From Crossaster papposus (taxonomy: Eukaryota > Echinodermata > Asteroidea > Velatida > Solasteridae): a DNA stretch of 64,000 nt. Shown here in pieces: positions 1 through 64,000 of this stretch. The notes beneath the pieces are model-generated. The model saw only the letters and a list, made by a program, of their open reading frames with translations, did no database searches and had not been told where the DNA came from. Within the stretch, counting starts at the first letter, position 1. Every line of letters begins with the position of its first letter. The DNA lies in contig JBAIAA010000865.1 of NCBI GenBank assembly GCA_037893245.1, positions 124,001 through 188,000 on the forward strand, given 5' to 3'. A program made the translations under genes and the position numbers.

Positions 1-320
1 TTCTACCTCTGCTGTTCCTTCTGAGCAGGCTGAGTGAGGTGTAGATCAGACACGTGGATATACTCTATCTCTGTATTCTAGCTCTGCTGTTCCTTCTGAG
101 CAGGCTGAGTGAGACACGTGGATATACTCTATCTCTGTCTTCTACCTATGCTGCTCCTTCTGGGCAAGCTGAGTGAGGTGTAGATCAGACACGTGGGTAT
201 ACTCTATATCTGTCTTCTACCTCTGCTGTTCCTTCTGAGCAGGCTGAGTGAGACACGTGGATATACTCTATCTCTGTATTCTACCTCTGCTGTTCCTTCT
301 AAGCAGGCTGAGAGAGGTGT
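1..320 (+). repeat. Left-edge monomers outside the first duplication
   Basis: These are ordinary mixed short and long monomers, beginning inside a monomer at the window edge. They carry private changes such as CCTATGCTGCTCC and GGGCAAGC near 145-170. Similarity to the copy 1,752 bp downstream weakens leftward of about 320 because a short monomer here faces a long one there. Nothing but the satellite is present. Confidence 0.85.
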
Positions 321-3300
321 AGATCAGACACGTGGATATACTCTATCTCTGTCTTCTACTTCTGCTGTTCCTTCTGAGCAGGCTGAGTGAGACACGTGGA
401 TATACTCTGTCTCTGTCTTCTACCTCTGCTGTTCCTTCTGAGCAGGCTGATAAGACACGTGGATATACTCTATCTCTGTCTTCTACCTCTGCTGTTCCTT
501 CTGAGCAGGCTGAGTGGGGTGTAGATCAGACACGTGGATATACTCTATCTCTGTCTTCTACCTCTGTTGTTCCTTCTGAGCAGGCTGAGTGAGGTGTAGA
601 TCAGACACGTGGATACACTCTATCTATGTCTTCTACCTCTGCTGTTCCTTCTGAGCAGACTGAGTGAGACACGTGGATATACACTATCTTTGTCTTCTAC
701 CTCTGTTGTTCCTTCTGAGCAGGCTGAGTGAGGTGTAAATCAGACACGTGGATATACTCTATCTCTGTCTTGTACCTCTGCTGTTCCTTCTGAGCAGGTT
801 GAGTGAGACACGTGGATATACTCTATCTCTGTCTTCTACTTCTGCTGTTCCTTATGAACAGGCTGAGTGAGGTGTAGATCAGACACGTGGATACACTCTA
901 TATCTGTCTTCTACCTCTGCTGTTTCTTCTGAGCAGGCTGAGTGAGACACTTGGATATACTCTATCTCTGTCGTCTACCTTTGCTGTTCCTTCTGAGCAG
1001 GCTGAGTGAGGTGTCGATCAGACACGTGGATATACTCTATCTCTGTTTTCTACCTCTGCTGTTCCTTCTGAGCAGGCTGAGTGAGGTGTATATCAGACAC
1101 GTGGATATACTCTATATCTATCTTCTACCTCTGCTGTTCCTTCTGAGCAGGCTGAGTGAGACACGTGGATATACTCTATCTCAGTCTTCTACCTCTGCTG
1201 TTCCTTGTGAGCAGGCTGAGTGAGGTGTAGATCAGACACGTGGATATACTCTATCTCTGTCTTCTACCTCTGCTGTTCCTTCTGAGCAGGCTGAGTGAGG
1301 TGTAGATCAGACACGTGGATATACTCTATCTCTATCTTCTACATCTGCTGTTCCTTCTGAGCAGGCTGAGTGAGACACGTGGATATACTCTATCTCTGTA
1401 TTCTACCTCTGCTGTTCCTTCTGAACAGGCTGAGTGAGACACGTGGATATACTCTATCTCTGTCTTCTACCTCTGCTGTTCCTTATGAGCAGGCTGAGTG
1501 AGGTGTAGATCAGACAAGTGGATATACTTTATCTCTGTCTTCTACCTCTGCTGTTCCTTCTGAGCAGGCTGAGTGAGGTGTAGATCAGACACGTTGATAT
1601 ACTCTATCTATATCTTCTACCTCTGCTTTTCCTTCTGAGCAGGCTGAGTGAGACACGTGGATATACTCTATCTCTGTCTTCCACCTTTGCTGTTCCTTCT
1701 GAGCAGGATTAGTGAGGTGTAATTCAGACACGTGGATATACTCTATCTCTGTCTTCTACCTCTGCTGTTCCTTCTGAGCAGGCTGATAAGACACGTGGAT
1801 ATACTCTATCTCTGTCTTCCACCTCTGCTGTTCCTTTTGAGCAGGCTGAGTGAGGTGTAGATCAGACACGTGGATATACTCTATCTCTGTCTTCTACCTC
1901 TGCTGTTCCTTCTGAGCAGGATGAGTGAGACACGTGGATATACTATATATCTGTCTTCTACCTCTGCTGTTCCTTCTGAGCAGGCTGAGTGAGTTGTAGA
2001 TCAGACACGTGGATATACTCTATCACTGTCTTCTACCTCTGCTGTTCCTTCTGAGCAGGCTGAGTGAGTTGTAGATCAGACACGTGGATATACTCTATCT
2101 CTGTCTTCTACTTCTGCTGTTCCTTCTGAGCAGGCTGAGTGAGACACGAGGATATACTCTGTCTCTGTCTTCTACCTCTGCTGTTCCTTCTGAGCAGGCT
2201 GATAAGACACGTGGATATACTCTATCTCTGTCTTCTACCTCTGCTGTTCCTTCTGAGCAGGCTGAGTGGGGTGTAGATCAGACACGTGGATATACTCTAT
2301 CTCTGTCTTCTACCTCTGTTGTTCCTTCTGAGCAGGCTGAGTGAGGTGTAGATCAGACACGTGGATACACTCTATCTATGTCTTCTACCTCTGCTGTTCC
2401 TTCTGAGCAGACTGAGTGAGACACGTGGATATACACTATCTTTGTCTTCTACCTCTGTTGTTCCTTCTGAGCAGGCTGAGTGAGGTGTAAATCAGACACG
2501 TGGATATACTCTATCTCTGTCTTGTACCTCTGCTGTTCCTTCTGAGCAGGCTGAGTGAGACACGTGGATATACTCTATCTCTGTCTTCTACTTCTGCTGT
2601 TCCTTATGAACAGGCTGAGTGAGGTGTAGATCAGACACGTGGATACACTCTATATCTGTCTTCTACCTCTGCTGTTTCTTCTGAGCAGGCTGAGTGAGAC
2701 ACTTGGATATACTCTATCTCTGTCGTCTACCTTTGCTGTTCCTTCTGAGCAGGCTGAGTGAGGTGTCGATCAGACACGTGGATATACTCTATCTCTGTCT
2801 TCTACCTCTGCTGTTCCTTCTGAGCAGGCTGAGTGAGGTGTATATCAGACACGTGGATATACTCTATATCTATCTTCTACCTCTGCTGTTCCTTCTGAGC
2901 AGGCTGAGTGAGACACGTGGATATACTCTATCTCAGTCTTCTACCTCTGCTGTTCCTTGTGAGCAGGCTGAGTGAGGTGTAGATCAGACACGTGGATATA
3001 CTCTATCTCTGTCTTCTACCTCTGCTGTTCCTTCTGAGCAGGCTGAGTGAGGTGTAGATCAGACACGTGGATATACTCTATCTCTATCTTCTACATCTGC
3101 TGTTCCTTCTGAGCAGGCTGAGTGAGACACGTGGATATACTCTATCTCTGTATTCTACCTCTGCTGTTCCTTCTGAACAAGCTGAGTGAGACACGTGGAT
3201 ATACTCTATCTCTGTCTTCTACCTCTGCTGTTCCTTATGAGCAGGCTGAGTGAGGTGTAGATCAGACAAGTGGATATACTTTATCTCTGTCTTCTACCTC

Positions 3301-3824
3301 TGCTGTTCCTTCTGAGCAGGCTGAGTGAGGTGTAGATCAGACACGTTGATATACTCTATCTATATCTTCTACCTCTGCTTTTCCTTCTGAGCAGGCTGAG
3401 TGAGACACGTGGATATACTCTATCTCTGTCTTCCACCTTTGCTGTTCCTTCTGAGCAGGATTAGTGAGGTGTAATTCAGACACGTGGATATACTCTATCT
3501 CTGTCTTCTACCTCTGCTGTTCCTTCTGAGCAGGCTGATAAGACACGTGGATATACTCTATCTCTGTCTTCCACCTCTGCTGTTCCTTCTGAGCAGGCTG
3601 AGTGAGGTGTAGATCAGACACGTGGATATACTCTATCTCTGTCTTCTACCTCTGCTGTTCCTTCTGAGCAGGATGAGTGAGACACGTGGATATACTATAT
3701 ATCTGTCTTCTACCTCTGCTGTTCCTTCTGAGCAGGCTGAGTGAGTTGTAGATCAGACACGTGGATATACTCTATCTCTGTCTTCTACCTCTGCTGTTCC
3801 TTCTGAGCAGGCTGAGTGAGGTGT
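321..3824 (+). repeat. Tandem duplication of a 1,752-bp block (two copies)
   Basis: Copy 1 is about 321-2072 and copy 2 about 2073-3824. Rare variants recur at exactly 1,752 bp, for example CTTGGATATACTC at 951 and 2703, and CACGTTGATATAC near 1592 and 3344. The block fits 25 monomers: 9 of 64 bp, 14 of 75 bp and 2 of 63 bp. I noticed fewer than ten differences, such as CACGAGG near 2146 against CACGTGG, so identity is near 99.5%. Boundaries are uncertain by about one monomer. Confidence 0.9.
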
Positions 3825-5201
3825 AGATCAGACACGTGGATATACTCTATCTCTGTCTTCTACCTCTGCTGTTCCTTCTGAGCAGGCTGAGTGAGACACG
3901 TGGATATACTCTATATCTGTCTTCTACCTCTGCTGTGCCTTCTGAGCAGGCTGAGTGAGGTGTAGATCAGACACGTGGATATACTCTATATCTGTCTTCT
4001 ACCTCTGCTGTTTCTTCTGAGCAGGTTGAGTGAGACACGTGGATAAACTCTATCTCTGTCTTCTACCTCTGCTGTTCCTTCTGAGCAGGCTGAGTGAGAC
4101 ACGTGAATATACTCTATCTATCTTCTACCTCTGCTGTTCCTTCTGAGCAGGCTGAGTGAGGTGTAGATCAGACACGTGGATATACTCTATATCTGTCTTG
4201 TACCTCTGCTGTTCCTTCTGAGCAGGCTGAGTGAGACACGTGGATATACTCTATCTCTGTCTTCTACCTCTGCTGATCCTTCTGAGCAGGCTGATAAGAC
4301 ACGTGGATATACTCTATCTCTGTCTTCTACCTCTGCTGTTCCTTCTGAGCAGGCTGAGTGGGGTGTAGATCAGACACGTGGATACACTCTATCTATGTCT
4401 TCTACCTCTGCTGTTCCTTCTGAGCAGGCTGAGTGAGACACGTGGATATACTCTATCTCTGTCTTCTACCTCTGCTGTTCCTTCTGAGCAGGCTGAGTGA
4501 GGTGTAGATCAGACACGTGGATATACTCTATCTCTGTCTTCTACCTCTGCTGTTCCTTCTGAGCAGGCTGAGTGAGACACGTGGATATACTCTATATCTG
4601 TCTTCTACCTCTGCTGTGCCTTCTGAGCAGGCTGAGTGAGGTGTAGATCAGACACGTGGATATACTCTATATCTGTCTTCTACCTCTGCTGTTTCTTCTG
4701 AGCAGGTTGAGTGAGACACGTGGATAAACTCTATCTCTGTCTTCTACCTCTGCTGTTCCTTCTGAGCAGGCTGAGTGAGACACGTGAATATACTCTATCT
4801 ATCTTCTACCTCTGCTGTTCCTTCTGAGCAGGTTGAGTGAGGTGTAGATCAGACACGTGGATATACTCTATATCTGTCTTGTACCTCTGCTGTTCCTTCT
4901 GAGCAGGCTGAGTGAGACACGTGGATATACTCTATATCTGTCTTCTACCTCTGCTGTTTCTTATGAACAGGCTGAGTGAGGGGTAGATCAGACACGTGGA
5001 TATACTCTATCTCTGTCTTCTACCTCTGCTGATCCTTCTGAGCAGGCTGATAAGACACGTGGATATACTCTATCTCTGTCTTCTACCTCTGCTGTTCCTT
5101 CTGAGCAGGCTGAGTGGGGTGTAGATCAGACACGTGGATACACTCTATCTATGTATTCTACCTCTGCTGTTCCTTCTGAGCAGGCTGAGTGAGACACGTG
5201 G
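3765..5201 (+). repeat. Tandem duplication of 681 bp, second copy enlarged by one long monomer
   Basis: Copy 1 is about 3765-4445 and copy 2 about 4446-5201. The markers CTGCTGTGCC, CTGCTGTTTCTTCTGAG and CACGTGAATATAC recur at an offset of 681. After about 4.9 kb the offset becomes 756, exactly one extra 75-bp monomer (with CTGTTTCTTATGAACAGG) in copy 2. CTGCTGATCC at 4271 matches 5027, and GGGGTGTAGATC near 4360 matches 5116. The block overlaps the end of the 1,752-bp duplication by about one monomer. Confidence 0.85.
4098..4170 (+). repeat. Example of the 73-bp monomer variant (2-bp deletion)
   Basis: This is a long monomer with CACGTGAATATACTC at its start and CTATCTATCTTCT where others read CTATCTCTGTCTTCT, a net loss of two bases. 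The next GACACG begins 73 bp downstream. Copies recur near 4.79, 7.89, 9.67, 10.97, 12.21, 16.05, 18.80, 19.91, 22.34, 24.06, 26.49 and 28.09 kb and I saw none afterwards. It tags the spread of one ancestral block through the left half. Confidence 0.88.
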
Positions 5202-6240
5202 ATATACTCTATCTCTGTCTTTTACCTCTGCTGTTCCTTCTGAACAGGCTGAGTGAGACACGTGGATATACTCTATCTCTGCTTCTACCTCTGCTGTTCC
5301 TTCTGAGCAAGCTGAGTGAGGTGTAGATCGGACATGTGGATATACTATATATCTGTATTGTACCTCTGCTGTTCCTTCTGAGCAGGCTGAGTGACACACG
5401 TGGATATACTCTATCTCTGTCTTCTACCTCTGCTGTTCCTTCTGAGCAGGCTGAGTGAGGTGTAGATCAGACACGTGGATAAACTCTATCTTTGTCTTCT
5501 ACCTCTGCTGTTCCTTCTGAGCAGGCTGAGTGAGACACGTGGATAAACAATATCTCTGTCTTCTACCTCTGCTGTTCCTTCTGAGCAGGCTGAGTGAGAC
5601 ACGTGGATATACTCTATCTCTGTCTTCTACCTCTGCTGTTCCTTCTGAGCAGGCTGAGTGAGGTGTAGATCAGACACGTGGATATACTCTATCTCTGTCT
5701 CCTATCTCTGCTGTTCCTTCTGAGCAGGCTGAGTGAGACACGTGGATATACTCTATCTCTGTCTTCTACCTCTGCTGCTCCTTCTGAGCAAGCTGAGTGA
5801 GGTGTAGATCAGACACGTGGATATACTCTATCTCTGTCTTCTACCTCTGCTGTTCCTTCTGAGCAGGCTGAGTGAGAGACGTGTATATACTCTATCTCTG
5901 TCTTCTACCTCTGATGTTCCTTTCGAGCAGACTGAGTGAGACATGTGGATATACTCGATCTTTGTCTTCTACCTCTGCTGTTCCTTCTGAGCATGCTGAG
6001 TGACGTGTAGATTAGACACGTGGATATACTCTATATCTGTATTGTACCTCTGCTGTTCCTTCTGAGCAGGCTGAGTGAGACACGTGGATATACTCTATAT
6101 CTGTCTTCTACCTCTGCTGTTCCTTATGAACAGGCTTAGTGAAGTGTAAATCAGACACGTGGATATACTCTATCTCTGTCTTCTACCTCTGCTGTTCCTT
6201 CTGAGCAGGCTGAGTGAGACACGTGGATATACTCTATCTC
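4440..6240 (+). repeat. Source copy of a 1.8-kb segment repeated 3,105 bp downstream
   Basis: This segment matches about 7545-9345 at a constant offset of 3,105 bp. Shared unusual monomers include the 74-bp form with ATCTCTGCTTCT (near 5275 and 8380), ATAAACAATATCTC (near 5545 and 8650), CTCCTATCTCTGC, and GACGTGTAGATTAG. Differences include ACATGTGG near 5333 against ACACGTGG, and a changed monomer at about 5874-5935. The two copies are separated by 6241-7544, so they form a spaced pair. Confidence 0.82.
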
Positions 6241-6420
6241 TGTCTTCTACCTCTGCTGTTCCTTATGAGCAGGCTGAGTGAGGTGTCGATCACACACGTG
6301 GATATACTTTATCTCTGTCTTCTACCTCTGCTATTCATTCTGAGCAGGCTGAGTGAGACACGTGGATATACTCTATCTCTGTCTTCTACCTCTGCTGTTC
6401 CTTCTGAGCAGGCTGAGTGA

Positions 6421-6484
6421 GACACGTGGATATACTCTATCTCTGTCTTCTACCTCTGCTGTTCCTTCTGAACAGGCTGAGTGA
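6421..6484 (+). repeat. Example of the short (64-bp) monomer
   Basis: This monomer runs from GACACGTGG to CTGAGTGA and joins the next GACACG directly. It differs from the commonest form only at GAACAGG, where most copies read GAGCAGG. It is given as a reference for the short type. Because 64 is one more than a multiple of three, each short monomer shifts the reading frame by one, which is why open frames break after a few monomers. Confidence 0.95.
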
Positions 6485-6559
6485 GACACGTGGATATACT
6501 CTATCTCTGTCTTCTACCTCTGCTGTTCCTTCTGAGCAGGCTGAGTGAGGTGTATATCA
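6485..6559 (+). repeat. Example of the long (75-bp) monomer
   Basis: This has the same 64-bp body as the preceding short monomer, followed by the 11-bp linker at 6549-6559, here in its GGTGTATATCA form. With the neighbour at 6421-6484 it makes the 139-bp dimer seen throughout the window. The junction shows 2 bp of microhomology (AG), so the short form could come from the long one by deletion or the reverse; the window does not settle which is ancestral. Linker variants include GGTGTAGATCA, GGTGTCGATCA, GTTGTAGATCA, GTTGTATATCA, GGTGTAAATCA and GGTGTAATTCA. Confidence 0.95.
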
Positions 6560-6698
6560 GACACGTGGATATACTATATATCTGTCTTGTACCTCTGCTG
6601 TTCCTTCTGAGCAGGTTGAGTGAGACACGTGGATATACTCTATCTCTGTCTTCCACCTTTGCTGTTCCTTCTGAGCAGGCTTAGTGAGGTGTAATTCA

Positions 6699-6761
6699 GA
6701 CACGTGGATATACTCTATCTCTGTCTTCTACCTCTGCTGCTCCTTCTGAGCAGGCTGATAA
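6699..6761 (+). repeat. Example of the 63-bp monomer variant (GCTGATAA end)
   Basis: This monomer ends GCTGATAA before GACACG in place of GCTGAGTGA, so it is one base shorter (63 bp). The variant is common from the left edge to about 28.35 kb. I did not see it again until about 56.82, 60.87, 62.69 and 63.39 kb. It is therefore a marker for the left-hand family and for the distal right flank, and is missing from the 4.3-kb HOR domain. Confidence 0.9.
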
Positions 6762-7100
6762 GACACGTGGATATACTCTATCTCTGTCTTCCACCTCTGC
6801 TGTTCCTTTTCAGCAGGCTGAGTGAGGTGTAGATCAGACACGTGGATATACTCTATCTCTGTCTTCTACCTCTGCTGTTCCTTCTGAGCAGGATGAGTGA
6901 GACACGTGGATATACTATATATCTGTCTTCTACCTCTGCTGTTCCTTCTGAGCAGGCTGAGTGAGTTGTAGATCAGACACGTGGATATACCCTATCTCTG
7001 TCTTCTACCTCTGCTGTTCCTTCTGAGCAGGCTGAGTGAGGTGTAGATCAGACACGTGGATATACTCTATCTCTGTCTTCTACCTCTGCTGTTCCTTCTG

Positions 7101-7680
7101 AGCAGGCTGAGTGAGGTGTAGATCAGACACGTTGATATACTCTATCTATATCTTCTACCTCTGCTTTTCCTTCTGAGCAGGCTGAGTGAGACACGTGGAT
7201 ATACTCTATCTCTGTCTTCCACCTTTGCTGTTCCTTCTGAGCAGGATTAGTGAGGTGTAATTCAGACACGTGGATATACTCTATCTCTGTCTTCTACCTC
7301 TGCTGTTCCTTCTGAGCAGGCTGATAAGACACGTGGATATACTCTATCTCTGTCTTCCACATCTGCTGTTCCTTCTGAGCAGGCTGAGTGAGGTGTAGAT
7401 CAGACACGTGGATATACTCTATCTCTGTCTTCTACCTCTGCTGTTCCTTCTGAGCAGGATGAGTGAGACACGTGGATATACTATATATCTGTCTTCTACC
7501 TCTGCTGTTCCTTCTCAGCAGGCTGAGTGAGTTGTAGATCAGACACGTGGATATACTCTATCTCTGTCTTCTACCTCTGCTGTTCCTTCTGAGCAGGCTG
7601 AGTGAGGTGTAGATCAGACACGTGGATATACTCTATCTCTGTCTTCTACCTCTGCTGTTCCTTCTGAGCAGGCTGAGTGA
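7101..7680 (+). repeat. Segment copied from about 3.3-3.9 kb (offset 3,786 bp)
   Basis: CACGTTGATATAC near 7129, GCAGGATTAGTG near 7237, GTAATTCAG, and GAGTTGTAGATC near 7529 match 3,343 and onward at an offset of 3,786 bp. That offset equals 3,105 plus 681, the two neighbouring duplication lengths. This segment therefore continues directly into the 3,105-bp copy that follows, and the two offsets record two successive events. Confidence 0.8.
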
Positions 7681-9460
7681 GACACGTGGATATACTCTAT
7701 ATCTGTCTTCTACCTCTGCTGTGCCTTCTGAGCAGGCTGAGTGAGGTGTAGATCAGACACGTGGATATACTCTATATCTGTCTTCTACCTCTGCTGTTTC
7801 TTCTGAGCAGGTTGAGTGAGACACGTGGATAAACTCTATCTCTGTCTTCTACCTCTGCTGTTCCTTCTGAGCAGGCTGAGTGAGACACGTGAATATACTC
7901 TATCTATCTTCTACCTCTGCTGTTCCTTCTGAGCAGGCTGAGTGAGGTGTAGATCAGACACGTGGATATACTCTATATCTGTCTTGTACCTCTGCTGTTC
8001 CTTCTGAGCAGGCTGAGTGAGACACGTGGATATACTCTATATCTGTCTTCTACCTCTGCTGTTTCTTATGAACAGGCTGAGTGAGGGGTAGATCAGACAC
8101 GTGGATATACTCTATCTCTGTCTTCTACCTCTGCTGATCCTTCTGAGCAGGCTGATAAGACACGTGGATATACTCTATCTCTGTCTTCTACCTCTGCTGT
8201 TCCTTCTGAGCAGGCTGAGTGGGGTGTAGATCAGACACGTGGATACACTCTATCTATGTCTTCTACCTCTGCTGTTCCTTCTGAGCAGGCTGAGTGAGAC
8301 ACGTGGATATACTCTATCTCTGTCTTTTACCTCTGCTGTTCCTTCTGAACAGGCTGAGTGAGACACGTGGATATACTCTATCTCTGCTTCTACCTCTGCT
8401 GTTCCTTCTGAGCAGGCTGAGTGAGGTGTAGATCGGACACGTGGATATACTATATATCTGTATTGTACCTCTGCTGTTCCTTCTGAGCAGGCTGAGTGAC
8501 ACACGTGGATATACTCTATCTCTGTCTTCTACCTCTGCTGTTCCTTCTGAGCAGGCTGAGTGAGGTGTAGATCAGACACGTGGATAAACTCTATCTTTGT
8601 CTTCTACCTCTGCTGTTCCTTCTGAGCAGGCTGAGTGAGACACGTGGATAAACAATATCTCTGTCTTCTACCTCTGCTGTTCCTTCTGAGCAGGCTGAGT
8701 GAGACACGTGGATATACTCTATCTCTGTCTTCTACCTCTGCTGTTCCTTCTGAGCAGGCTGAGTGAGGTGTAGATCAGACACGTGGATATACTCTATCTC
8801 TGTCTCCTATCTCTGCTGTTCCTTCTGAGCAGGCTGAGTGAGACACGTGGATATACTATATCTCTGTCTTCTACCTCTGCTGCTCCTTCTGAGCAAGCTG
8901 AGTGAGGTGTAGATCAGACACGTGGATATACTCTATCTCTGTCTTCTACCTCTGATGTTCCTTCTGAGCAGGCTGAGTGAGACACGTGGATATACTCTAT
9001 CTCTGTCTTCTACCTCTGCTGTTCCTTTTGAGCAGATTGAGTGAGACACGTGGATATACTCGATCTTTGTCTTCTACCTCTGCTGTTCCTTCTGAGCATG
9101 CTGAGTGACGTGTAGATTAGACACGTGGATATACTCTATATCTGTATTGTACCTCTGCTGTTCCTTCTGAGCAGGCTGAGTGAGACACGTGGATATACTC
9201 TATATCTGTCTTCTACCTCTGCTGTTCCTTATGAACAGGCTTAGTGAAGTGTAAATCAGACACGTGGATATACTCTATCTCTGTCTTCTACCTCTGCTGT
9301 TCCTTCTGAGCAGGCTGAGTGAGACACGTGGATATACTCTATCTCTGTCGTCTACCTCTGCTGTTCCTTCTGAGCAGGCTGAGTGAGGTGTCGATCAGAC
9401 ACGTGTATATACTCTATCTCTGTCCTCTACCTCAGCTGTTCCTTCTGAGCAGGCTGAGTG
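7545..9460 (+). repeat. Second copy of the 3,105-bp-offset segment, also the parent of 12,061-13,778
   Basis: It matches about 4440-6240 upstream at 3,105 bp. From 7743 to 9460 it also matches 12,061-13,778 at 4,318 bp. Shared features with the downstream copy include GAGGGGTAGATC near 8084, the 74-bp monomer, ATAAACAATATC, CTCCTATCTCTGC and GAGCAGATTGAG. The match ends at about 9460, where this copy reads CTATATCTG and the other CTATCTCTG. Confidence 0.82.
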
Positions 9461-12060
9461 AGACACGTGGATATACTCTATATCTGTCTTCTACCTCTGC
9501 TGTGCCTTCTGAGCAGGCTGAGTGAGGTGTAGATCAGACACGTGGATATACACTATATCTGTCTTCTACCTCTGCTGTTTCTTCTGAGCAGGTTGAGTGA
9601 GACACGTGGATAAACTCTATCTCTGTCTTCTACCTCTGCTGTTCCTTCTGAGCAGGCTGAGTGAGACACGTGAATATACTCTATCTATCTTCTACCTCTG
9701 CTGTTCCTTCTGAGCAGGCTGAGTGAGGTGTAGATCAGACACGTGGATATACTCTATCTCTGTCTTGTACCTCTGCTGTTCCTTCTGAGCAGGCTGAGTG
9801 AGACACGTGGATATACTCTATATCTGTCTTCTACCTCTGCTGTTTCTTATGAACAGGCTGAGTGAGGTGTAGATCAGACACGTGGATATACTCTAACTCT
9901 GTCTTCTACCTCTGCTGATCCTTCTGAGCAGGCTGATAAGACACGTGGATATACTCTATCTCTGTCTTCTACCTCTGCTGTTCCTTCTGAGCAGGCTGAG
10001 TGGGGTGTAGATCAGACACGTGGATACACTCTATCTATGTCTTCTACCTCTGCTGTTCCTTCTGAGCAGGCTGAGTGAGACACGTGGATATACTCTATCT
10101 CTGTCTTTTACCTCTGCTGTTCCTTCTGAGCAGGCTGAGTGAGGTGTCGATCAGACACGTGTATATACTCTATCTCTGTCCTCTACCTCAGCTGTTCCTT
10201 CTGAGCAGGCTGAGTGAGACACGTGGATATACTCTATCTCTGTCTTCTACCTCTGCTGTTCCTTATGAGCAGGCTGAGTGAGGTGTCGATCACACACGTG
10301 GATATACTTTATCTCTGTCTTCTACCTCTGCTGTTCATTCTGAGCAGGCTGAGTGAGACACGTGGATATACTCTATCTCTGTCTTCTACCTCTGCTGTTC
10401 CTTCTGAGCAGGCTGAGTGAGACACGTGGATATACTCTATCTCTGTCTTCTACCTCTGCTGTTCCTTCTGAACAGGCTGAGTGAGACACGTGGATATACT
10501 CTATCTCTGTCTTCTACCTCTGCTGTTCCTTCTGAGCAGGCTGAGTGAGGTGTATATCAGACACGTGGATATACTATATATCTGTCTTGTACCTCTGCTG
10601 TTCCTTCTGAGCAGGTTGAGTGAGACTCGTGGATATACTCTATCTCTGTCTTCCACCTTTGCTGTTCCTTCTGAGCAGGCTTAGTGAGGTGTAATTCAGA
10701 CACGTGGATATACTCTATCTCTGTCTTCTACCTCTGCTGTTCCTTCTGAGCAGGCTGATAAGACACGTGGATATACTCTATATCTGTCTTCTACCTCTGC
10801 TGTGCCTTCTGAGCAGGCTGAGTGAGGTGTAGATCAGACACGTGGATATACACTATATCTGTCTTCTACCTCTGCTGTTTCTTCTGAGCAGGTTGAGTGA
10901 GACACGTGGATAAACTCTATCTCTGTCTTCTACCTCTGCTGTTCCTTCTGAGCAGGCTGAGTGAGACACGTGAATATACTCTATCTATCTTCTACCTCTG
11001 CTGTTCCTTCTGAGCAGGCTGAGTGAGGTGTAGATCAGACACGTGGATATACTCTATCTCTGTCTTGTACCTCTGCTGTTCCTTCTGAGCAGGCTGAGTG
11101 AGACACGTGGATATACTCTATATCTGTCTTCTACCTCTGCTGTTTCTTATGAACAGGCTGAGTGAGGTGTAGATCAGACACGTGGATATACTCTAACTCT
11201 GTCTTCTACCTCTGCTGATCCTTCTGAGCAGGCTGATAAGACACGTGGATATACTCTATCTCTGTCTTCTACCTCTGCTGTTCCTTCTGAGCAGGCTGAG
11301 TGGGGTGTAGATCAGACACGTGGATACACTCTATCTATGTCTTCTACCTCTGCTGTTCCTTCTGAGCAGGCTGAGTGAGACACGTGGATATACTCTATCT
11401 CTGTCGTCTACCTCTGCTGTTCCTTCTGAGCAGGCTGAGTGAGGTGTCGATCAGACACGTGTATATACTCTATCTCTGTCCTCTACCTCAGCTGTTCCTT
11501 CTGAGCAGGCTGAGTGAGACACGTGGATATACTCTATCTCTGTCTTCTACCTCTGCTGTTCCTTATGAGCAGGCTGAGTGAGGTGTCGATCACACACGTG
11601 GATATACTTTATCTCTGTCTTCTACCTCTGCTGTTCATTCTGAGCAGGCTGAGTGAGACACGTGGGTATACTCTATCTCTGTCTTCTACCTCTGCTGTTC
11701 CTTCTGAGCAGGCTGAGTGAGACACGTGGATATACTCTATCTCTGTCTTCTACCTCTGCTGTTCCTTCTGAACAGGCTGAGTGAGACACGTGGATATACT
11801 CTATCTCTGTCTTCTACCTCTGCTGTTCCTTCTGAGCAGGCTGAGTGAGGTGTATATCAGACACGTGGATATACTATATATCTGTCTTGTACCTCTGCTG
11901 TTCCTTCTGAGCAGGTTGAGTGAGACACGTGGATATACTCTATCTCTGTCTTCCACCTTTGCTGTTCCTTCTGAGCAGGCTTAGTGAGGTGTAATTCAGA
12001 CACGTGGATATACTCTATCTCTGTCTTCTACCTCTGCTGTTCCTTCTGAGCAGGCTGAGT
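9461..12060 (+). repeat. Tandem duplication of 1,300 bp (two copies)
   Basis: Copy 1 is 9461-10,760 and copy 2 is 10,761-12,060. The offset is constant across CTGCTGTGCC, the CACGTGAATATAC monomer, CTCTAACTCTG, GGGGTGTAGATC, and the CACACACGTGG series. The length fits 19 monomers, 8 of them long, minus 4 bp of known deletions (two 63-bp monomers and one 2-bp deletion). Copies differ at a few sites, for example CTGTCTTTTACC near 10,101 against CTGTCGTCTACC near 11,401. Confidence 0.9.
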
Positions 12061-18586: not shown

Positions 18587-18599
18587 TGAGTGAGACACG

Positions 18600-49100: not shown

Positions 49101-49843
49101 CTATCTCTGTCTTCTACCTCTGCTGTTCCTTATGAGCAGGCTGAGTGAGGTGTCGATCACACACGTGGATATACTTTATCTCTGTCTTCTACCTCTGCTG
49201 TTCATTCTGAGCAGGCTGGGTGAGACACGTGGATATACTCTATCTCTGTCTTCTACCTCTGTTGTTCCTTCTGAGCAGGCTGAGTGAGACACGTGGATAT
49301 ACTCTATCTCTGTCTTCTACCTCTGCTGTTCCTTCTGAACAGGCTGAGTGAGACACGTGGATATACTCTATCTCTGTCTTCTACCTCTGCTGTTCCTTCT
49401 GAGCAGGCTGAGTGAGGTGTATATCAGACACGTGGATATACTATATATCTGTCTTGTACCTCTGCTGTTCCTTCAGAGCAGGTTGAGTGAGACACGTGGA
49501 TATACTCTATCTCTGTCTTCTACCTCTAATGTTCCTTCTGAGCAGGCTGAGTGAGGTGTAGATCAGACACGTGGATATACTCTATCTTTGTCTTCTACCT
49601 CTGCTGTTCCTTCTGAGCAGGCTGAGTGAGGTGTAGATCAGACACGTGGATATACTCTATCTCTGGCTTCGACCTCTGCTGCTCCTTCTGAGCAGGCTGA
49701 GTGAGTTGTATATCAGACACGCGGATATACTCTATCTCTGTCTTCTACCTCTGCTGTTCCTTCTGAGCAGGCTGAGTGAGACACGTGGATATACTCTATC
49801 TCTGTCTTCTACCTCTGCTGTTCCTTCAGAGCAGGCTGAGTGA
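46121..49843 (+). repeat. Fourth, rearranged copy of the HOR
   Basis: The first part (to about 47.1 kb) matches 29.3-30.2 kb at 16,843 bp. The later part matches 31.7-33.8 kb at 15,998 and then 16,062 bp. It carries CACGTGCATATAC near 48,405, GACGCGTGG near 48,466 and one 1.25-kb-type subunit with CTGGCTTCGACC near 49,667. It differs by GACACGTGG where the three-copy set has GACACGGGG, and by CACGAGG near 47,987 and 48,330. Confidence 0.82.
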
Positions 49844-50331
49844 GGTGTAGATCAGACACGTGGATATACTCTATCTCTGTCTTCTACCTCTGCTGTTCCT
49901 TCTGAGCAGGCTGAGTGAGACACGTGGATATACTCTATCTCTGTCTTTCAGCTCTGCTGTTCCTTCTGAGCAGGCTGAGTGAGGTGTCGATCAGACACGT
50001 GTATATACTCTATCTCTGTCCTCTACCTCAGCTGTTCCTTCTGAGCAGGCTGAGTGAGACACGTGGATATACTCTATCTCTGTCGTCTACCTCTGCTGTT
50101 CCTTCTGAGCAGGCTGAGTGAGGTGTCGATCAGACACGTGTATATACTCTATCTCTGTCCTCTACCTCAGCTGTTCCTTCTGAGCAGGCTGAGTGAGACA
50201 CGTGGATATACTCTATCTCTGTCTTCTACCTCTGCTGTTCCTTATGAGCAGGCTGAGTGAGGTGTCGATCACACACGTGGATATACTTTATCTCTGTCTT
50301 GTACCTCTGCTGTTCCTTCTGAGCAGGTTGA
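49844..50331 (+). repeat. Three CTTTCAG/GTCGTC dimers (copy of 43.6-44.1 kb)
   Basis: Dimers starting at 49,915, 50,054 and 50,193 are spaced by exactly 139 bp and match 43,627, 43,766 and 43,905. They are the clearest place to see the short/long dimer alternation. They join directly to the 1,187-bp repeats that follow. Confidence 0.85.
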
Positions 50332-52705: not shown

Positions 52706-55700
52706 GTGAGACACGTGGATATACTCTATCTCTGTCTTCTACCTCTGCTGTTCCTTCTGAGCAGGCTGAGTGAGGTGTATATCAGACACGTGGATATACT
52801 ATATATCTGTCTTGTACCTCTGCTGTTCCTTCTGAGCAGGTTGAGTGAGACACGTGGATATACTCTATCTCTGTCTTCTACCTCTAATGTTCCTTCTGAG
52901 CAGGCTGAGTGAGGTGTAGATCAGACACGTGGATATACTCTATCTTTGTCTTCTACCTCTGCTGTTCCTTCTGAGCAGGCTGAGTGAGGTGTAGATCAGA
53001 CACGTGGATATACTCTATCTCTGGCTTCGACCTCTGCTGCTCCTTCTGAGCAGGCTGAGTGAGTTGTATATCAGACACGCGGATATACTCTATCTCTGTC
53101 TTCTACCTCTGCTGTTCCTTCTGAGCAGGCTGAGTGAGACACGTGGATATACTCTATCTCTGTCTTCTACCTCTGCTGTTCCTTCAGAGCAGGCTGAGTG
53201 AGGTGTAGATCAGACACGTGGATATACTGTATCTCTGTCTTCTACCTCTGCTGTTCCTTCTGAGCAGGCTGAGTGAGACACGTGGATATACTCTATCTCT
53301 GTCTTTCAGCTCTGCTGTTCCTTCTGAGCAGGCTGAGTGAGGTGTCGATCAGACACGTGTATATACTCTATCTCTGTCCTCTACCTCAGCTGTTCCTTCT
53401 GAGCAGGCTGAGTGAGACACGTGGATATACTCTATCTCTGTTGTCTACCTCTGCTGTTCCTTCTGAGCAGGCTGAGTGAGGTGTCGATCAGACACGTGTA
53501 TATACTCTATCTCTGTCCTCTACCTCAGCTGTTCCTTCTGAGCAGGCTGAGTGAGACACGTGGATATACTCTATCTCTGTCTTCTACCTCTGCTGTTCCT
53601 TATGAGCAGGCTGAGTGAGGTGTCGATCACACACGTGGATATACTTTATCTCTGTCTTCTACCTCTGCTGTTCATTCTGAGCAGGCTGGGTGAGACACGT
53701 GGATATACTCTATTTCTGTCTTCTACCTCTGCTGTTCCATCTGAGCAGGCTGAGTGAGACACGTGGATATACTCTATCTCTGTCTTCTACCTCTGCTGTT
53801 CCTTCTGAACAGGCTGAGTGAGACACGTGGATATACTCTATCTCTGTCTTCTACCTCTGCTGTTCCTTCTGAGCAGGCTGAGTGAGGTGTATATCAGACA
53901 CGTGGATATACTATATATCTGTCTTGTACCTCTGCTGTTCCTTCTGAGCAGGTTGAGTGAGACACGTGGATATACTCTATCTCTGTCTTCTACCTCTAAT
54001 GTTCCTTCTGAGCAGGCTGAGTGAGGTGTAGATCAGACACGTGGATATACTCTATCTTTGTCTTCTACCTCTGCTGTTCCTTCTGAGCAGGCTGAGTGAG
54101 GTGTAGATCAGACACGTGGATATACTCTATCTCTGGCTTCGACCTCTGCTGCTCCTTCTGAGCAGGCTGAGTGAGTTGTATATCAGACACGCGGATATAC
54201 TCTATCTCTGTCTTCTACCTCTGCTGTTCCTTCTGAGCAGGCTGAGTGAGACACGTGGATATACTCTATCTCTGTCTTCTACCTCTGCTGTTCCTTTAGA
54301 GCAGGCTGAGTGAGGTGTAGATCAGACACGTGGATATACTCTATCTCTGTCTTCTACCTCTGCTGTTCCTTCTGAGCAGGCTGAGTGAGACACGTGGATA
54401 TACTCTATCTCTGTCTTTCAGCTCTGCTGTTCCTTCTGAGCAGGCTGAGTGAGGTGTCGATCAGACACGTGTATATACTCTATCTCTGTCCTCTACCTCA
54501 GCTGTTCCTTCTGAGCAGGCTGAGTGAGACACGTGGATATACTCTATCTCTGTCGTCTACCTCTGCTGTTCCTTCTGAGCAGGCTGAGTGAGGTGTCGAT
54601 CAGACACGTGTATATACTCTATCTCTGTCCTCTACCTCAGCTGTTCCTTCTGAGCAGGCTGAGTGAGACACGTGGATATACTCTATCTCTGTCTTCTACC
54701 TCTGCTGTTCCTTATGAGCAGGCTGAGTGAGGTGTCGATCACACACGTGGATATACTTTATCTCTGTCTTCTACCTCTGCTGTTCATTCTGAGCAGGCTG
54801 GGTGAGACACGTGGATATACTCTATTTCTGTCTTCTACCTCTGCTGTTCCATCTGAGCAGGCTGAGTGAGACACGTGGATATACTCTATCTCTGTCTTCT
54901 ACCTCTGCTGTTCCTTCTGAACAGGCTGAGTGAGACACGTGGATATACTCTATCTCTGTCTTCTACCTCTGCTGTTCCTTCTGAGCAGGCTGAGTGAGGT
55001 GTATATCAGACACGTGGATATACTATATATCTGTCTTGTACCTCTGCTGTTCCTTCTGAGCAGGTTGAGTGAGACACGTGGATATACTCTATCTCTGTCT
55101 TCTACCTCTAATGTTCCTTCTGAGCAGGCTGAGTGAGGTGTAGATCAGACACGTGGATATACTCTATCTTTGTCTTCTACCTCTGCTGTTCCTTCTGAGC
55201 AGGCTGAGTGAGGTGTAGATCAGACACGTGGATATACTCTATCTCTGGCTTCGACCTCTGCTGCTCCTTCTGAGCAGGCTGAGTGAGTTGTATATCAGAC
55301 ACGCGGATATACTCTATCTCTGTCTTCTACCTCTGCTGTTCCTTCTGAGCAGGCTGAGTGAGACACGTGGATATACTCTATCTCTGTCTTCTACCTCTGC
55401 TGTTCCTTCAGAGCAGGCTGAGTGAGGTGTAGATCAGACACGTGGATATACTCTATCTCTGTCTTCTACCTCTGCTGTTCCTTCTGAGCAGGCTGAGTGA
55501 GACACGTGGATATACTCTATCTCTGTCTTTCAGCTCTGCTGTTCCTTCTGAGCAGGCTGAGTGAGGTGTCGATCAGACACGTGTATATACTCTATCTCTG
55601 TCCTCTACCTCAGCTGTTCCTTCTGAGCAGGCTGAGTGAGACACGTGGATATACTCTATCTCTGTCGTCTACCTCTGCTGTTCCTTCTGAGCAGGCTGAG

Positions 55701-56605
55701 TGAGGTGTCGATCAGACACGTGTATATACTCTATCTCTGTCCTCTACCTCAGCTGTTCCTTCTGAGCAGGCTGAGTGAGACACGTGGATATACTCTACCT
55801 CTGTCTTCTACCTCTGCTGTTCCTTATGAGCAGGTTGAGTGAGGTGTCGATCACACACGTGGATATACTTTATCTCTGTCTTCTACCTCTGCTGTTCATT
55901 CTGAGCAGGCTGAGTGAGACACGTGGATATACTCTATCTCTGTCTTCTACCTCTGCTGTTCCTTCTGAGCAGGCTGAGTGAGACACGTGGATATACTCTA
56001 TCTCTGTCTTCTACCTCTGCTGTTCCTTCTGAACAGGCTGAGTGAGACACGTGGATATACTCTATCTCTGTCTTCTACCTCTGCTGTTCCTTCTGAGCAG
56101 GCTGAGTGAGGTGTATATCAGACACGTGGATATACTATATATCTGTCTTGTACCTCTGCTGTTCCTTCTGAGCAGGTTGAGTGAGACACGTGGATATACT
56201 CTATCTCTGTCTTCTACCTCTAATGTTCCTTCTGAGCAGGCTGAGTGAGGTGTAGATCAGACACGTGGATATACTCTATCTTTGTCTTCTACCTCTGCTG
56301 TTCCTTCTGAGCAGGCTGAGTGAGGTGTATATCAGACACGTGGATATACTCTATCTCTGTCTTCGACCTCTGCTGCTCCTTCTGAGCATGCTGAGTGAGT
56401 TGTATATCAGACACGCGGATATACTCTATCTCTGTCTTCTACCTCTGCTGTTCCTTCTGAGCAGGCTGAGTGAGACACGTGGATTTACTCTATCTATGTC
56501 TTCTACCTCTGCTGTTCCTTCAGAGCAGGCTGAGTGAGGTGTAGATCAGACACGTGGATATACTCTATCTCTGTCTTCTACCTCTGCTGTTCCTTCTGAG
56601 CAGGC
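52706..56605 (+). repeat. 1,112-bp HOR, three tandem copies and a partial fourth
   Basis: Copies are 52,706-53,817, 53,818-54,929 and 54,930-56,041, with a partial one to about 56,605. Each is eight 139-bp dimers (8 short, 8 long). Each full copy has the CTTTCAGCTCTG monomer (ending 53,309, 54,421 and 55,533) and CTGGCTTCGACC. The unit is one 75-bp monomer shorter than the preceding 1,187-bp HOR. Confidence 0.9.
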
Positions 56606-58574
56606 TAGTGAGACACGTGGATATACTCTATCTCTGTCTTCTACCTCTGCTGCTGCTTCTGAGCAAGCTGAGTGAGGTGTCGATCACACACGTGGATATA
56701 CTTTATCTCTGTCTTCTACCTCTGCTGTTCATTATGAGCAGGCTGAGTGAGGTGTAGATCAGACACGTGGATATACTCTATCTCTATCTTCTACCTCTGC
56801 TTTTCCTTCTGAGCAGGCTGATAAGACACGTGGATATACTCTATCTCTGTCTTCTACCTCTGCTGTTCCTTCTGAGCAGGCTGAGTGAGGTGTAGATCAG
56901 ACAAGTGGATATACTCTTTATCTGTCTTCTACCTCTGCTGTTCCTTCTGAGCAGGCTGAGTGAGACACGTGGATATACTCTATCTCTGTCTTCTACCTCT
57001 AATGTTCCTTCTGAGCAGGCTGAGTGAGTTGTATATCAGACACGCGGATATACTCTATCTCTGTCTTCTACCTCTGCTGTTCCTTCTGAGCAGGCTGAGT
57101 GAGACACGTGGATATACTCTATCTCTGTCTTCTACCTCTGCTGTTCCTTCAGAGCAGGCTGAGTGAGGTGTAGATCAGACACGTGGATATACTCTATCTC
57201 TGTCTTCTACCTCTGCTGTTCCTTCTGAGCAGGCTGAGTGAGACACGTGGATATACTCTATCTCTGTCTTTCAGCTCTGCTGTTCCTTCTGAGCAGGCTG
57301 AGTGAGGTGTCGATCAGACACGTGTATATACTCTATCTCTGTCCTCTACCTCAGCTGTTCCTTCTGAGCAGGCTGAGTGAGACACGTGGATATACTCTAT
57401 CTCTGTCGTCTACCTCTGCTGTTCCTTCTGAGCAGGCTGAGTGAGGTGTCGATCAGACACGTGTATATACTCTATCTCTGTCCTCTACCTCAGCTGTTCC
57501 TTCTGAGCAGGCTGAGTGAGACACGTGGATATACTCTATCTCTGTCTTCTACCTCTGCTGTTCCTTATGAGCAGGCTGAGTGAGGTGTCGATCACACACG
57601 TGGATATACTTTATCTCTGTCTTGTACCTCTGCTGTTCCTTCTGAGCAGGTTGAGTGAGACACGTGGATATACTCTATCTCTGTCTTCTACCTCTAATGT
57701 TCCTTCTGAGCAGGCTGAGTGAGGTGTAGATCAGACACGTGGATATACTCTATCTTTGTCTTCTACCTCTGCTGTTCCTTCTGAACAGGCTGAGTGAGAC
57801 ACGTGGATATACTCTATCTCTTTCTTCTACCTCTGCTGTTCCTTCTGAGCAGGCTGAGTGAGGTGTATATCAGACACGTGGATATACTATATATCTGTCT
57901 TGTACCTCTGCTGTTCCTTCTGAGCAGGTTGAGTGAGACACGTGGATATACTCTATCTCTGTCTTCTACCTCTAATGTTCCTTCTGAGCAGGCTGAGTGA
58001 GGTGTAGATCAGACACGTGGATATACTCTATCTTTGTCTTCTACCTCTGCTGTTCCTTCTGAGCAGGCTGAGTGAGGTGTAGATCAGACACGTGGATATA
58101 CTCTATCTCTGTCTTCGACCTCTGCTGCTCCTTCTGAGCAGGCTGAGTGAGTTGTATATCAGACACGCGGATATACTCTATCTCTGTCTTCTACCTCTGC
58201 TGTTCCTTCTGAGCAGGCTGAGTGAGACACGTGGATATACTCTATCTCTGTCTTCTACCTCTGCTGTTCCTTCAGAGCAGGCTGAGTGAGGTGTAGATCA
58301 GACACGTGGATATACTCTATCTCTGTCTTCTACCTCTGCTGTTCCTTCTGAGCAGGCTGAGTGAGACACGTGGATATACTCTATCTCTGTCTTCTACCTC
58401 TGCTGCTCCTTCTGAGCAAGCTGAGTGAGGTGTCGATCACACACGTGGATATACTTTATCTCTGTCTTATACCTCTGCTGTTCATTATGAGCAGGCTTAG
58501 TGAAGTGTAAATCAGACACGTGGATATACTCTATCTCTGTCTTCTACCTCTGCTGTTCCTTCTGAGCAGGCTGA
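54524..58574 (+). repeat. 4,050-bp duplication, copy 1
   Basis: This matches 58,575 onward at 4,051 and then 4,050 bp; the one-base step is a deletion near 59,131. It includes CTCTACCTCTGTC near 55,795, GAGCATGCTGAGTGAG near 56,385, the one-base deletion CAGGCTAGTG near 56,605, CTGCTGCTTCTGAGC near 56,650, and a 63-bp monomer near 56,820. Near 57.0 kb it lacks 150 bp (two long monomers) that are present in copy 2. Confidence 0.85.
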
Positions 58575-61500: not shown

Positions 61501-61940
61501 AGTGAGGTGTCGATCAGACACGTGTATATACTCTATCTCTGTCCTCTACCTCAGCTGTTCCTTCTGAGCAGGCTGAGTGAGACACGTGGATATACTCTAT
61601 CTCTGTCGTCTACCTCTGCTGTTCCTTCTGAGCAGGCTGAGTGAGGTGTCGATCAGACACGTGTATATACTCTATCTCTGTCCTCTACCTCAGCTGTTCC
61701 TTCTGAGCAGGCTGAGTGAGACACGTGGATATACTCTATCTCTGTCTTCTACCTCTGCTGTTCCTTATGAGCAGGCTGAGTGAGGTGTCGATCACACACG
61801 TGGATATACTTTATCTCTGTCTTCTACCTCTGCTGTTCATTCTGAGCAGGCTGAGTGAGACACGTGGATATACTCTATCTCTGTCTTCTACCTCTGCTGT
61901 TCCTTCTGAGCAGGCTGAGTGAGACACGTGGATATACTCT
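58575..61940 (+). repeat. 4,050-bp duplication, copy 2
   Basis: It follows copy 1 up to about 61.0 kb, then continues at an offset of 4,200 bp (150 bp more) to about 61.85 kb. The CAGGCTAGTG deletion recurs near 60,655. Private changes include CTCTACATCAGC near 59,794, CCTCTACTGCTCC near 60,419 and ATATACTATATC near 61,457. The one-base deletion near 59,131 (CACGTGGTATAC) lies in this copy only. Confidence 0.85.
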
Positions 61941-64000
61941 ATCTCTGTCTTCTACCTCTGCTTTTCCTTCTGAACAGGCTGAGTGAGACACGTGGATATA
62001 CTCTATCTCTGTCTTCTACCTCTGCTGTTCCTTCTGAGCAGGCTGAGTGAGGTGTATATCAGACACGTGGATATACTATATATCTGTCTTGTACCTCTGC
62101 TGTTCCTTCTGAGCAGGTTGAGTGAGACACGTGGATATACTCTATCTCTGTCTTCTACCTCTAATGTTCCTTCTGAGCAGGCTGAGTGAGGTGTAGATCA
62201 GACACGTGGATATACTCTATCTTTGTCTTCTACCTCTGCTGTTCCTTCTGAGCAGGCTGAGTGAGGTGTATATCAGACACGTGGATATACTCTATCTCTG
62301 TCTTCTACCTCTGCTGTTCCTTCTGAGCAGGCTGAGTGAGACACGTGGATATACTCTATCTCTGTCTTCTACCTCTGCTGTTCCTTCAGAGCAGGCTGAG
62401 TGAGGTGTAGATCAGACACGTGGATATACTCTATCTCTGTCTTCTACCTCTGCTGTTCCTTCTGAGCAGGCTGAGTGAGACACGTGGATATACTCTATCT
62501 CTGTCTTCTACCTCTGCTGCTCCTTCTGAGCAAGCTGAGTGAGGTGTCGATCACACACGTGGATATACTTTATCTCTGTCTTCTACCTCTGCTGTTCATT
62601 ATGAGCAGGCTGAGTGAGGTGTAGATCAGACACGTGGATATACTCTATCTCTATCTTCTACCTCTGCTTTTCCTTCTGAGCAGGCTGATAAGACACGTGG
62701 ATATACTCTATCTCTGTCTTCTACCTCTGCTGTTCCTTCTGAGCAGGCTGAGTGAGGTGTAGATCAGACACGTGGATATACTCTTTATCTGTCTTCTACC
62801 TCTGCTGTTCCTTCTGAGCAGGCTGAGTGAGACACGTGGATATACTCTATATCTGTATTCTACCTCTGCTCTTTCTTATGAACAGGCTGAGTGAGGTGTA
62901 GATCAGACACGTGGATATACTCTATCTCTGTCTTCTACCTCTGCTGTTCCTTCTGAGCAGGCTGAGTGAGGTGTAGATCAGACTCTTGGATATACTCTAT
63001 CTCTGTCTTCTACCTCTGCTGTTCCTTCTGAGCAGACTGAGTGAGACACGTGGATATACTCTATATTTGTCTTCTACCTCTGCTGTTCCTTCTGAGCAGG
63101 CTGAGTGAGACACGTGGATATACTCTATCTCTGTCTTCTACTTCTGCTGTTCCTTATGAACAGGCTGAGTGAGGTGTAGATCAGACACGTGGATATACTC
63201 TATATCTGTCTTATACCTCTGCTGTTCCTTATGAGCAGGCTGAGTGAGGTGTCGATCACACACGTGGATATACTTTATCTCTGTCTTCTACCTCTGCTGT
63301 TCATTCTGAGCAGGCTGAGTGAGGTGTAGATCAGACACGTGGATATACTCTATCTCTATCTTCTACCTCTGCTTTTCCTTCTGAGCAGGCTGATAAGACA
63401 CGTGGATATACTCTATCTCTGTCTTCTACCTCTGCTGTTCCTTCTGAGCAGGCTGAGTGAGACACTTGGATATACTCTATCTTTGTCTTCTACCTCTGCT
63501 GTTCCTTCTGAGCAGGCTGAGTGAGGTGTCGATCAGACACGTGGATATACTATATCTCTGTCTTCTACCTCTGCTGTTCCTTCTGAGCAGGCTGAGTGAG
63601 GTGTAGATCAGACACGTGGATATACTCTATCTCTATCTTCTACATCTGCTGTTCCTTCTGAGCAAGCTGAGTGAGACACGTGGATATACTCTATCTCTGT
63701 ATTCTACCTCTGCTGTTCATTGTGAGCAGGCTGAGTGAGGTGTAGATCAGACACGTGGATATACTCTCTCTCTGTCTTCTACCTCTGCTGTTCCTTCTGA
63801 GCAGGCTGAGTGAGACACGTGGATATACTCTATCTCTGTCTTCTACCTCTGCTGTTCCTTCTGAACAGGCTGAGTGAGACACGTGGATATACTCTATCTC
63901 TGTCTTCTACCTCTGCTGTTCCTTCTGAGCAGGCTGAGTGAGGTGTAGATCAGACACGTGGATATACTATATCTCTGTATTGTACCTCTGCTGTTCCTTC
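61941..64000 (+). repeat. Distal mixed tail of the array
   Basis: Monomers here mix right-family variants (CCTCTAATGTTCC, CTCTTATACC) with left-family ones: 63-bp monomers near 62,690 and 63,390, CTCTTTCTTATGAAC near 62,870, and from about 63,600 CTTCTACATCTGC followed by CTGTATTCTACC, the order also seen near 1,335-1,410 and 3,087-3,160. Private changes such as CTCTCTCTGTC near 63,763 are more frequent. The array continues past the window edge. Confidence 0.8.

What the first reader, a model, noticed from the sequence alone, without database searches (positions are those of the whole stretch)
1..64000. A 64-kb satellite with a two-length monomer (64 and 75 bp) that I do not recognise
The entire window is one array with no interruption. 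The unit exists in two lengths that differ by a clean 11-bp linker, and these alternate imperfectly as a 139-bp dimer. I know of no named satellite with this monomer, but I cannot search, so 'undescribed' is inference.
Basis: partly seen in the sequence, partly recalled or inferred. Interest (0 to 1): 0.7.

Follow-up and report, generated by a model that had tools for sequence, protein, structure and literature searches.

The report
Sea-star satellite DNA, two unit lengths
The window lies inside a very long stretch of simple repeated DNA in what is very probably a sea-star genome, built from one short unit in a shorter and a longer form; it looks like the repeat DNA often found around centromeres and is probably an undescribed but ordinary example of it.

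Summary
All 64 kb is one head-to-tail array on one strand: 456 short units (63-64 bp), 462 long units (73-75 bp) and one 138-bp interval that holds two units. The main lengths differ by an 11-bp linker and alternate more than chance (77% of neighbours against 50% in shuffles). The window sits in a 1.72-Mb contig that held satellite in all 43 stretches read, both ends included. A second contig (1.89 Mb) looks like the other haplotype. The source is very probably a sea star by its mitochondrion. Short and long units have the same 64-bp consensus core but carry partly different variants. This fits one young monomer family, split by a small indel, then amplified as a dimer and in blocks of 1 to 4 kb, one pair identical over 4.2 kb. 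No motif or hairpin stands out. It is a new sequence of a well-known kind; novelty was checked only against open papers and prokaryote, virus and plasmid collections, not Dfam or Repbase. A centromeric role is plausible but untested.

The parts
1..64000 (+). Uninterrupted satellite array, mean unit about 69.5 bp, all units on one strand
49..112 (+). Example of a short unit (64 bp)
113..187 (+). Example of a long unit (75 bp = a 64-bp core plus an 11-bp linker at its end)
391..453 (+). Example of the 63-bp variant of the short unit, ending CTGATAA before the next GACACG
1..28000 (+). Domain with lower dimer regularity (identity at lag 139 is 0.55-0.70 per 2 kb) and most of the 63-, 73- and 74-bp units; boundary approximate
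30000..58000 (+). Domain with more regular 139-bp dimers (identity at lag 139 is 0.73-0.81 per 2 kb); boundary approximate
33158..37364 (+). Block of 4,207 bp repeated at lag 4192 with 0 mismatches (second copy about 37350-41556): a very recent tandem block duplication
30600..35126 (+). Block of about 4.5 kb repeated at lag 8523 with 99.76% identity
52283..55441 (+). Stretch that matches itself at lag 1112 (16 units) with 99.46% identity
59060..59197 (+). The one 138-bp interval: two units, the anchor of the second damaged by a small deletion

Best explanation
This is ordinary non-coding satellite DNA, very probably of a sea star: one young monomer family in which an 11-bp linker is present or absent. 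A monomer gained or, more likely, lost the linker by a small slip between short direct repeats, and a long-short pair of 139 bp then became the favoured unit of amplification. Unequal exchange and tandem duplication of blocks of about 1 to 4 kb keep copying groups of dimers. That explains the near-identical blocks, the mixture of LS, LL and SS neighbours, and two contigs that look like haplotypes differing by kilobases. The block most likely forms (peri)centromeric heterochromatin. Shown here: anatomy, size, alternation and near-identical blocks. Inferred: the two contigs as haplotypes, deletion as the direction, exchange as the mechanism. Inferred without a test: the chromosomal place and any role.
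For: Unit structure and alternation. Alternation above the random expectation in 22 of 22 stretches of the contig, the window included (69-bp units were counted as a third class, which raises the value in L010-L013). Short and long share one 64-bp consensus, and distinct cores differ by 5.39 (short-short), 5.06 (long-long) and 5.32 (short-long) bases per 64. Yet several frequent variants sit almost wholly in one class: C30G in 42 distinct short and 2 long cores, G56A in 47 and 1, T42C in 2 and 32; a tree needs 38 class changes among 180 cores against 51-65 in 30 shuffles. That is what a recent dimer exchanged mostly in register would show. Block copies: 4,207 bp with 0 mismatches, four others at 99.5-99.8%; 46.8% of 8-unit stretches have another copy with at most 1 difference in the window. 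Second contig: the first 600 bases of the window match C142 at 100%, while the best places of three C142 probes lie 5.4 and 3.6 kb short of, and 0.6 kb beyond, the collinear place. As far as sampled, the array fills the 1.7-Mb contig, with a strand switch.
Against: No flank outside the array was seen, so the chromosomal place is unknown; both contigs begin and end inside satellite. The direction of the indel is not settled: 63-bp units are nearer to short (11 of 23 distinct cores) than to long (2; 10 ties), so they do not serve as a second independent deletion of the linker. Classes are not cleanly separate: 39 cores occur in both, making up 536 of 1755 short and 494 of 1759 long units, and some frequent variants (C21A, G52A) occur in both. 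The core tree is weak (64 sites, FastTree, no support values read). The C142 placements have near ties: 2 against 5 mismatches, 1 against 3, and 21 against 22. Such blocks can be misassembled. The genome-wide count of the satellite was never obtained, because that search did not complete.
Confidence: 0.8

Rival explanations
1. The alternation of 64- and 75-bp units is selected, for example because it spaces a bound protein or nucleosomes; the 11-bp step is close to one helical turn, so short and long units keep nearly the same rotational phase.
For: Alternation exceeds the random expectation in 22 of 22 stretches spread over 660 kb. The common lengths 63-64 and 73-75 lie near 6 and 7 turns of 10.5 bp, while the 69-bp form (6.6 turns) is rare: 38 of 3750 intervals, found only in the four stretches read between 20 and 90 kb. 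The turn arithmetic is mine.
Against: The one motif I checked is not set apart: the CACGTG positions are 0.949-0.992 consensus among distinct units, like much of the rest. Hairpins fold no better than shuffles (z from +0.21 to -1.30 in 7 folds). Amplification alone explains alternation.
Confidence: 0.1
2. Two old monomer types (A and B) in a classical diverged dimer, as in alpha satellite.
For: Long and short alternate and TRF scores the 139-bp period higher; some variants are class-restricted.
Against: The consensus cores are identical over 64 bp, and between-class differences (5.32) are hardly above within-class ones (5.39, 5.06); LL and SS neighbours are common (110 and 105 of 918).
Confidence: 0.05
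3. An assembly artefact: a short real array inflated or folded back by the assembler.
For: The strand switch at about 611.7 kb and exact 4.2-kb duplications are typical places for errors.
Against: The other contig has the start of the inverted island with the same geometry (C865:482822-483477, C142:485573-486228) and is also reversed by 620 kb. The sequence after the main switch is not a mirror of that before it: four 1-kb stretches beyond the switch differ at 162 to 420 of 1000 positions from the mirror place, and a 10-kb stretch shares 0.04-0.26 of 75-mers with the 20 plus-strand sources, against up to 0.72 between two plus-strand stretches.
Confidence: 0.05
4. The array is real satellite but lies outside centromeres, for example subtelomeric or on an accessory chromosome.
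For: Nothing seen excludes it; no flank was found.
Against: Only the general association of megabase single-family arrays with centromeres (Melters et al. 2013, passages read).
Confidence: 0.35

Closest known systems
Dimeric and higher-order candidate centromere satellites (Melters et al. 2013, PMC4053949, passages read)
   Same: Large tandem array, indel-bearing variants, dimer as the better repeat unit, longer repeating blocks.
   Different: There the A and B monomers clustered apart; here the cores share one consensus and the classes are only partly separated.
Switchgrass centromere repeat with truncated units in the higher-order repeat (same paper)
   Same: Normal and shortened versions of one monomer combined into a longer repeating unit.
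   Different: There the shortened units were about a third to a half of the normal length and ended blocks of four to six; here the step is 11 bp and alternates nearly one to one.
Alpha satellite of primates (recalled, and passages)
   Same: Head-to-tail array, higher-order blocks of near-identical copies, homogenised by exchange.
   Different: 171-bp monomers; I know of no such 64/75 alternation there (recalled). I did not compare sequences or look for a CENP-B box.

Membership tests
Satellite DNA | Long head-to-tail array of similar non-coding units | tested here: met
   920 anchors on one strand in 64 kb; contig holds satellite at both ends and in 43 of 43 stretches read; no tRNA or Rfam match in the window. 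Protein coding in the window was not searched for.
Satellite DNA | Concerted evolution: copies within the array much alike, with local near-identical blocks | tested here: met
   96.6-96.7% to consensus; 4,207-bp identical block. No second species was available for the between-species half of the definition.
Higher-order repeat of alpha-satellite type (diverged A/B monomers) | Monomers in the dimer cluster apart by position | tested here: inconclusive
   Same consensus core and similar diversity between and within classes, but class-restricted variants and fewer class changes than shuffles
Higher-order repeat of alpha-satellite type (diverged A/B monomers) | One fixed multi-unit period repeated through the array | tested here: not met
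   In the window, many lags (1112, 1251, 1752, 2433, 4192, 4331 bp and more) rather than one
Centromeric satellite | Carries CENP-A chromatin or lies at the primary constriction | not testable with these tools
   Needs ChIP or FISH; no flanking unique DNA was seen
A catalogued satellite (Dfam or Repbase) | Sequence match to a library entry | not testable with these tools
   Libraries not held; paper text search for six sequence words gave 0 papers
Asteroidea as the source | Echinoderm mitochondrial code and asteroid gene arrangement | tested here: met
   AAA read as N restores conserved residues of COX1; ND1, ND2 and ND6 (recognised by eye) and 16S (Rfam) lie on the strand opposite to COX1, as printed for Acanthaster (PMC1382216, passages). 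No sequence comparison with a named sea star was made.

The most novel reading that the evidence does not exclude
The array is a sea-star centromere whose alternating 64/75-bp spacing is kept by selection because it preserves rotational phase (a step of about one helical turn) for centromeric nucleosomes or a bound protein, so that length variants are filtered by helical phase while the sequence drifts.
Probability: 0.07. Interest if true: 0.6.

Novelty: new member of a known kind. Interest (0 to 1): 0.27.

Why it matters
In the paper listings I saw, none was about a named satellite of a sea star. A megabase array caught early in the change from monomer to dimer, with what look like two haplotypes and recent blocks, is a fair natural test of how higher-order repeats start. 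As a single finding it is ordinary genome biology.

Tried and rejected
Conserved binding motif (the CACGTG palindrome): not more conserved than much of the rest among distinct units. CpG decay: the one CpG of the core is about average, so no sign of strong methylation decay. Hairpin formed by the linker: z-scores from +0.21 to -1.30. The 63-bp unit as an independent deletion of the linker: it is nearer to the short class. Fold-back assembly: not supported (in one search only about 3.4 kb of the true mirror place had been read, so one search is the better test). Naming the species: the published Zoroaster cf. ophiactis assembly (longest contig 898.5 kb) does not fit. The published Astropecten irregularis (475.80 Mb, mitochondrion 16.34 kb) and Marthasterias glacialis (521 Mb) assemblies are about half the size, so size alone does not exclude a two-haplotype assembly of either (passages of each). 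No species is claimed. Homologues in virus, prokaryote and plasmid collections: none, as expected for an animal satellite. The satellite-finder paper PMC10153287 lists M. glacialis among its data sets, but the terms 139, 75-bp and 64-bp do not occur in its text (passages). Genome-wide abundance of the satellite, and a search of the whole genome for the strand-switch joint: not obtained.

Rows dropped or kept: a looser anchor gave 9 minus-strand intervals that I take as chance (5 in L009, 4 in the window); they stay in the total of 3750 but are of about 1 to 2.4 kb and enter no 63- to 75-bp class. The S/L comparison used only units of exactly 64 or 75 bp (1755 and 1759 of 3750 intervals). The tree used 90 short and 90 long cores sampled from 183 and 192 that occur at least twice and in one class only; leaving out the cores shared by both classes favours separation. 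The paper searches showed at most 20 rows each: 20 of 26, 20 of 2,292 (49), 1 of 1 (50), 7 of 7 (55), 20 of 99 (71), 7 of 7 (72), 20 of 20 (83).
Full report
OBSERVATION. The window is one satellite array without interruption. TRF reports period 139 over 1-64000 and period 75 over 48-63942. An anchor allowing 6 substitutions in 22 bases occurs 920 times on the + strand and 0 times on the other. The 919 intervals are 456 short, 462 long and one of 138 bp made of two units. The short consensus is 64 bp and the long one is the same 64 bp followed by 11 more. Composition is flat throughout (GC 0.460-0.480 in 32 windows of 2 kb). There is no tRNA and no Rfam match in the window.

ALTERNATION. Neighbours differ in length in 0.766 of cases; 1000 shuffles gave a mean of 0.501 and a maximum of 0.550. 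Block duplication could inflate this, so I counted each distinct 6-unit word once: 697 of 914 words, mean 0.758. Across the contig the value exceeds the random expectation in 22 of 22 stretches, the window included. It is lowest in L009, L010, L011 and L024 (0.55-0.63). In L010 to L013 the 69-bp units were counted as a third class, which raises the value.

SURROUNDINGS. The window is C865:124001-188000 of a 1.02-Gb assembly in 1841 contigs. I read 43 stretches of C865, 225.5 kb of 1,723.9 kb besides the window. All 43 hold the satellite, among them the first 10 kb and the last 1 kb; two of them also hold part of an inserted element. In the stretches read, units run on + up to about 611.7 kb, apart from an inverted island at about 483.4-487.9 kb, and on - from there to the end. 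By eye the two switch points I could read show overlaps of 3 and 4 bases. The inserted element is a non-LTR retrotransposon of about 3.7 kb at about 228.9-232.7 kb, with reverse transcriptase and endonuclease domains. The main switch is not a fold-back of the assembly: four 1-kb stretches beyond it differ from the mirror place at 162 to 420 of 1000 positions.

SECOND CONTIG. C142 (1,890,877 bp) is satellite in 13 of 13 stretches read, both ends included; of these, L066 to L068 were judged by their match to the window. The first 600 bases of the window match C142:111159-111758 at 100%, and the inverted island begins with the same geometry in both contigs. Three 800-base C142 probes fall best, without gaps, on window positions 7404 (2 mismatches; next best 5), 27208 (1; next best 3) and 49464 (21; next best 22). 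A strictly collinear copy would give about 12843, 30843 and 48843. The third placement is poor and may be a mosaic. I read this as two haplotypes of one array that have gained and lost blocks of kilobases. That the assembly holds both haplotypes is inference; two different chromosomes are not excluded.

SOURCE. Contig C1841 (16,330 bp) is a mitochondrion. Its COX1 has 13 TGA codons inside, and reading AAA as N restores conserved stretches such as FSTNHKDIGTLY (the conserved form is recalled). ND1, ND2 and ND6, which I recognised by eye among the frames, and the 16S gene lie on the strand opposite to COX1. This is the arrangement printed for Acanthaster, which is said to follow Asterina (PMC1382216, passages). 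PMC7947835 (passages) says that asteroids differ from echinoids and holothuroids by the ND1/16S interchange, while ophiuroids and crinoids vary more. So the source is very probably a sea star; the species is not claimed.

UNITS. Among units of exactly 64 or 75 bp in the window and 20 ten-kb stretches (1755 and 1759 of 3750 intervals), the distinct 64-bp cores differ by 5.39 (short-short, 401 cores), 5.06 (long-long, 423 cores) and 5.32 (short-long) bases. Thirty-nine cores occur in both classes and make up 536 of the short and 494 of the long units. The nearest core is of the same class in 0.71 of cases against 0.49 in shuffles. Some frequent variants are nearly confined to one class and others, such as C21A, occur in both. 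A tree of 180 cores needs 38 class changes, against 51-65 in 30 shuffles. So the two lengths are one family, recently split and partly separate. A 63-bp form (119 units, 114 ending TAA) is nearer to the short class in 11 of 23 distinct cores, to the long in 2, with 10 ties. A 69-bp form with 5 extra bases occurs 38 times, only in the four stretches read between 20 and 90 kb.

BLOCKS. Near-identical blocks recur in the window at many lags, the commonest between 1.1 and 4.3 kb. The clearest is 4,207 bp repeated at lag 4192 with no mismatch. Of 8-unit stretches in the window, 76% have another copy with at most 5 differences and 47% with at most 1. There is no single fixed higher-order period. The left 28 kb is less regular than the stretch from 30 to 58 kb.

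MECHANISM. The best reading is a young satellite. A short indel between small direct repeats made a second length, a long-short dimer was amplified, and unequal exchange and block duplication keep spreading groups of dimers. The indel direction is not shown; deletion is favoured only because the linker in the long unit is bounded by AG on both sides, a common setting for a slip (by eye). The place on the chromosome and any role are not shown. Size, purity and inversions suit (peri)centromeric heterochromatin.

WHAT SPEAKS AGAINST MORE. The motif I checked is not set apart by conservation and no hairpin beats shuffles clearly. Selection on spacing is therefore a speculation, resting on the near-helical-turn step and the rarity of the 69-bp form.

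NOVELTY. Searches of 5.39 million open papers for six sequence words and for unit lengths gave 0 papers. Searches for sea-star or echinoderm satellites were seen as listings of at most 20 rows each, and no listed title or abstract start describes it. Dfam, Repbase and animal genomes were out of reach. Melters et al. 2013 (PMC4053949, passages) report indel-bearing variants, dimers and blocks with truncated units in candidate centromere satellites. I file it as a new member of a known kind.

Noticed in passing
L055 and L017 (C865, about 228.9-232.7 kb): A non-LTR retrotransposon inserted in the satellite, minus strand, with a long open frame (924 aa including read-in from satellite) holding endonuclease and reverse transcriptase domains. 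By eye it looks cut short at its 5' end, has a possible 5-base target duplication and carries a short internal tandem repeat near its 3' end.
   Followed up: partly
L049, L051, L052 (contig C8, 5.3 Mb): The assembly holds a 5.3-Mb contig with COX1-family genes in open frames without internal stops, probably a bacterium living with the animal or a contaminant.
   Followed up: no
L023 about 483.4-487.9 kb and L065 about 611.7 kb of C865: Strand switches inside the array; the first has the same geometry in the second contig, and by eye the two joints read show 3- to 4-base overlaps.
   Followed up: partly
L010-L013 (C865, stretches between 20 and 90 kb): A local 69-bp unit form with 5 extra bases, found only in these four of the stretches examined.
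   Followed up: partly
units of L009-L028 and the window: C to A changes are frequent at several C positions of the unit (such as positions 17, 21 and 48), often more than C to T.
   Followed up: no
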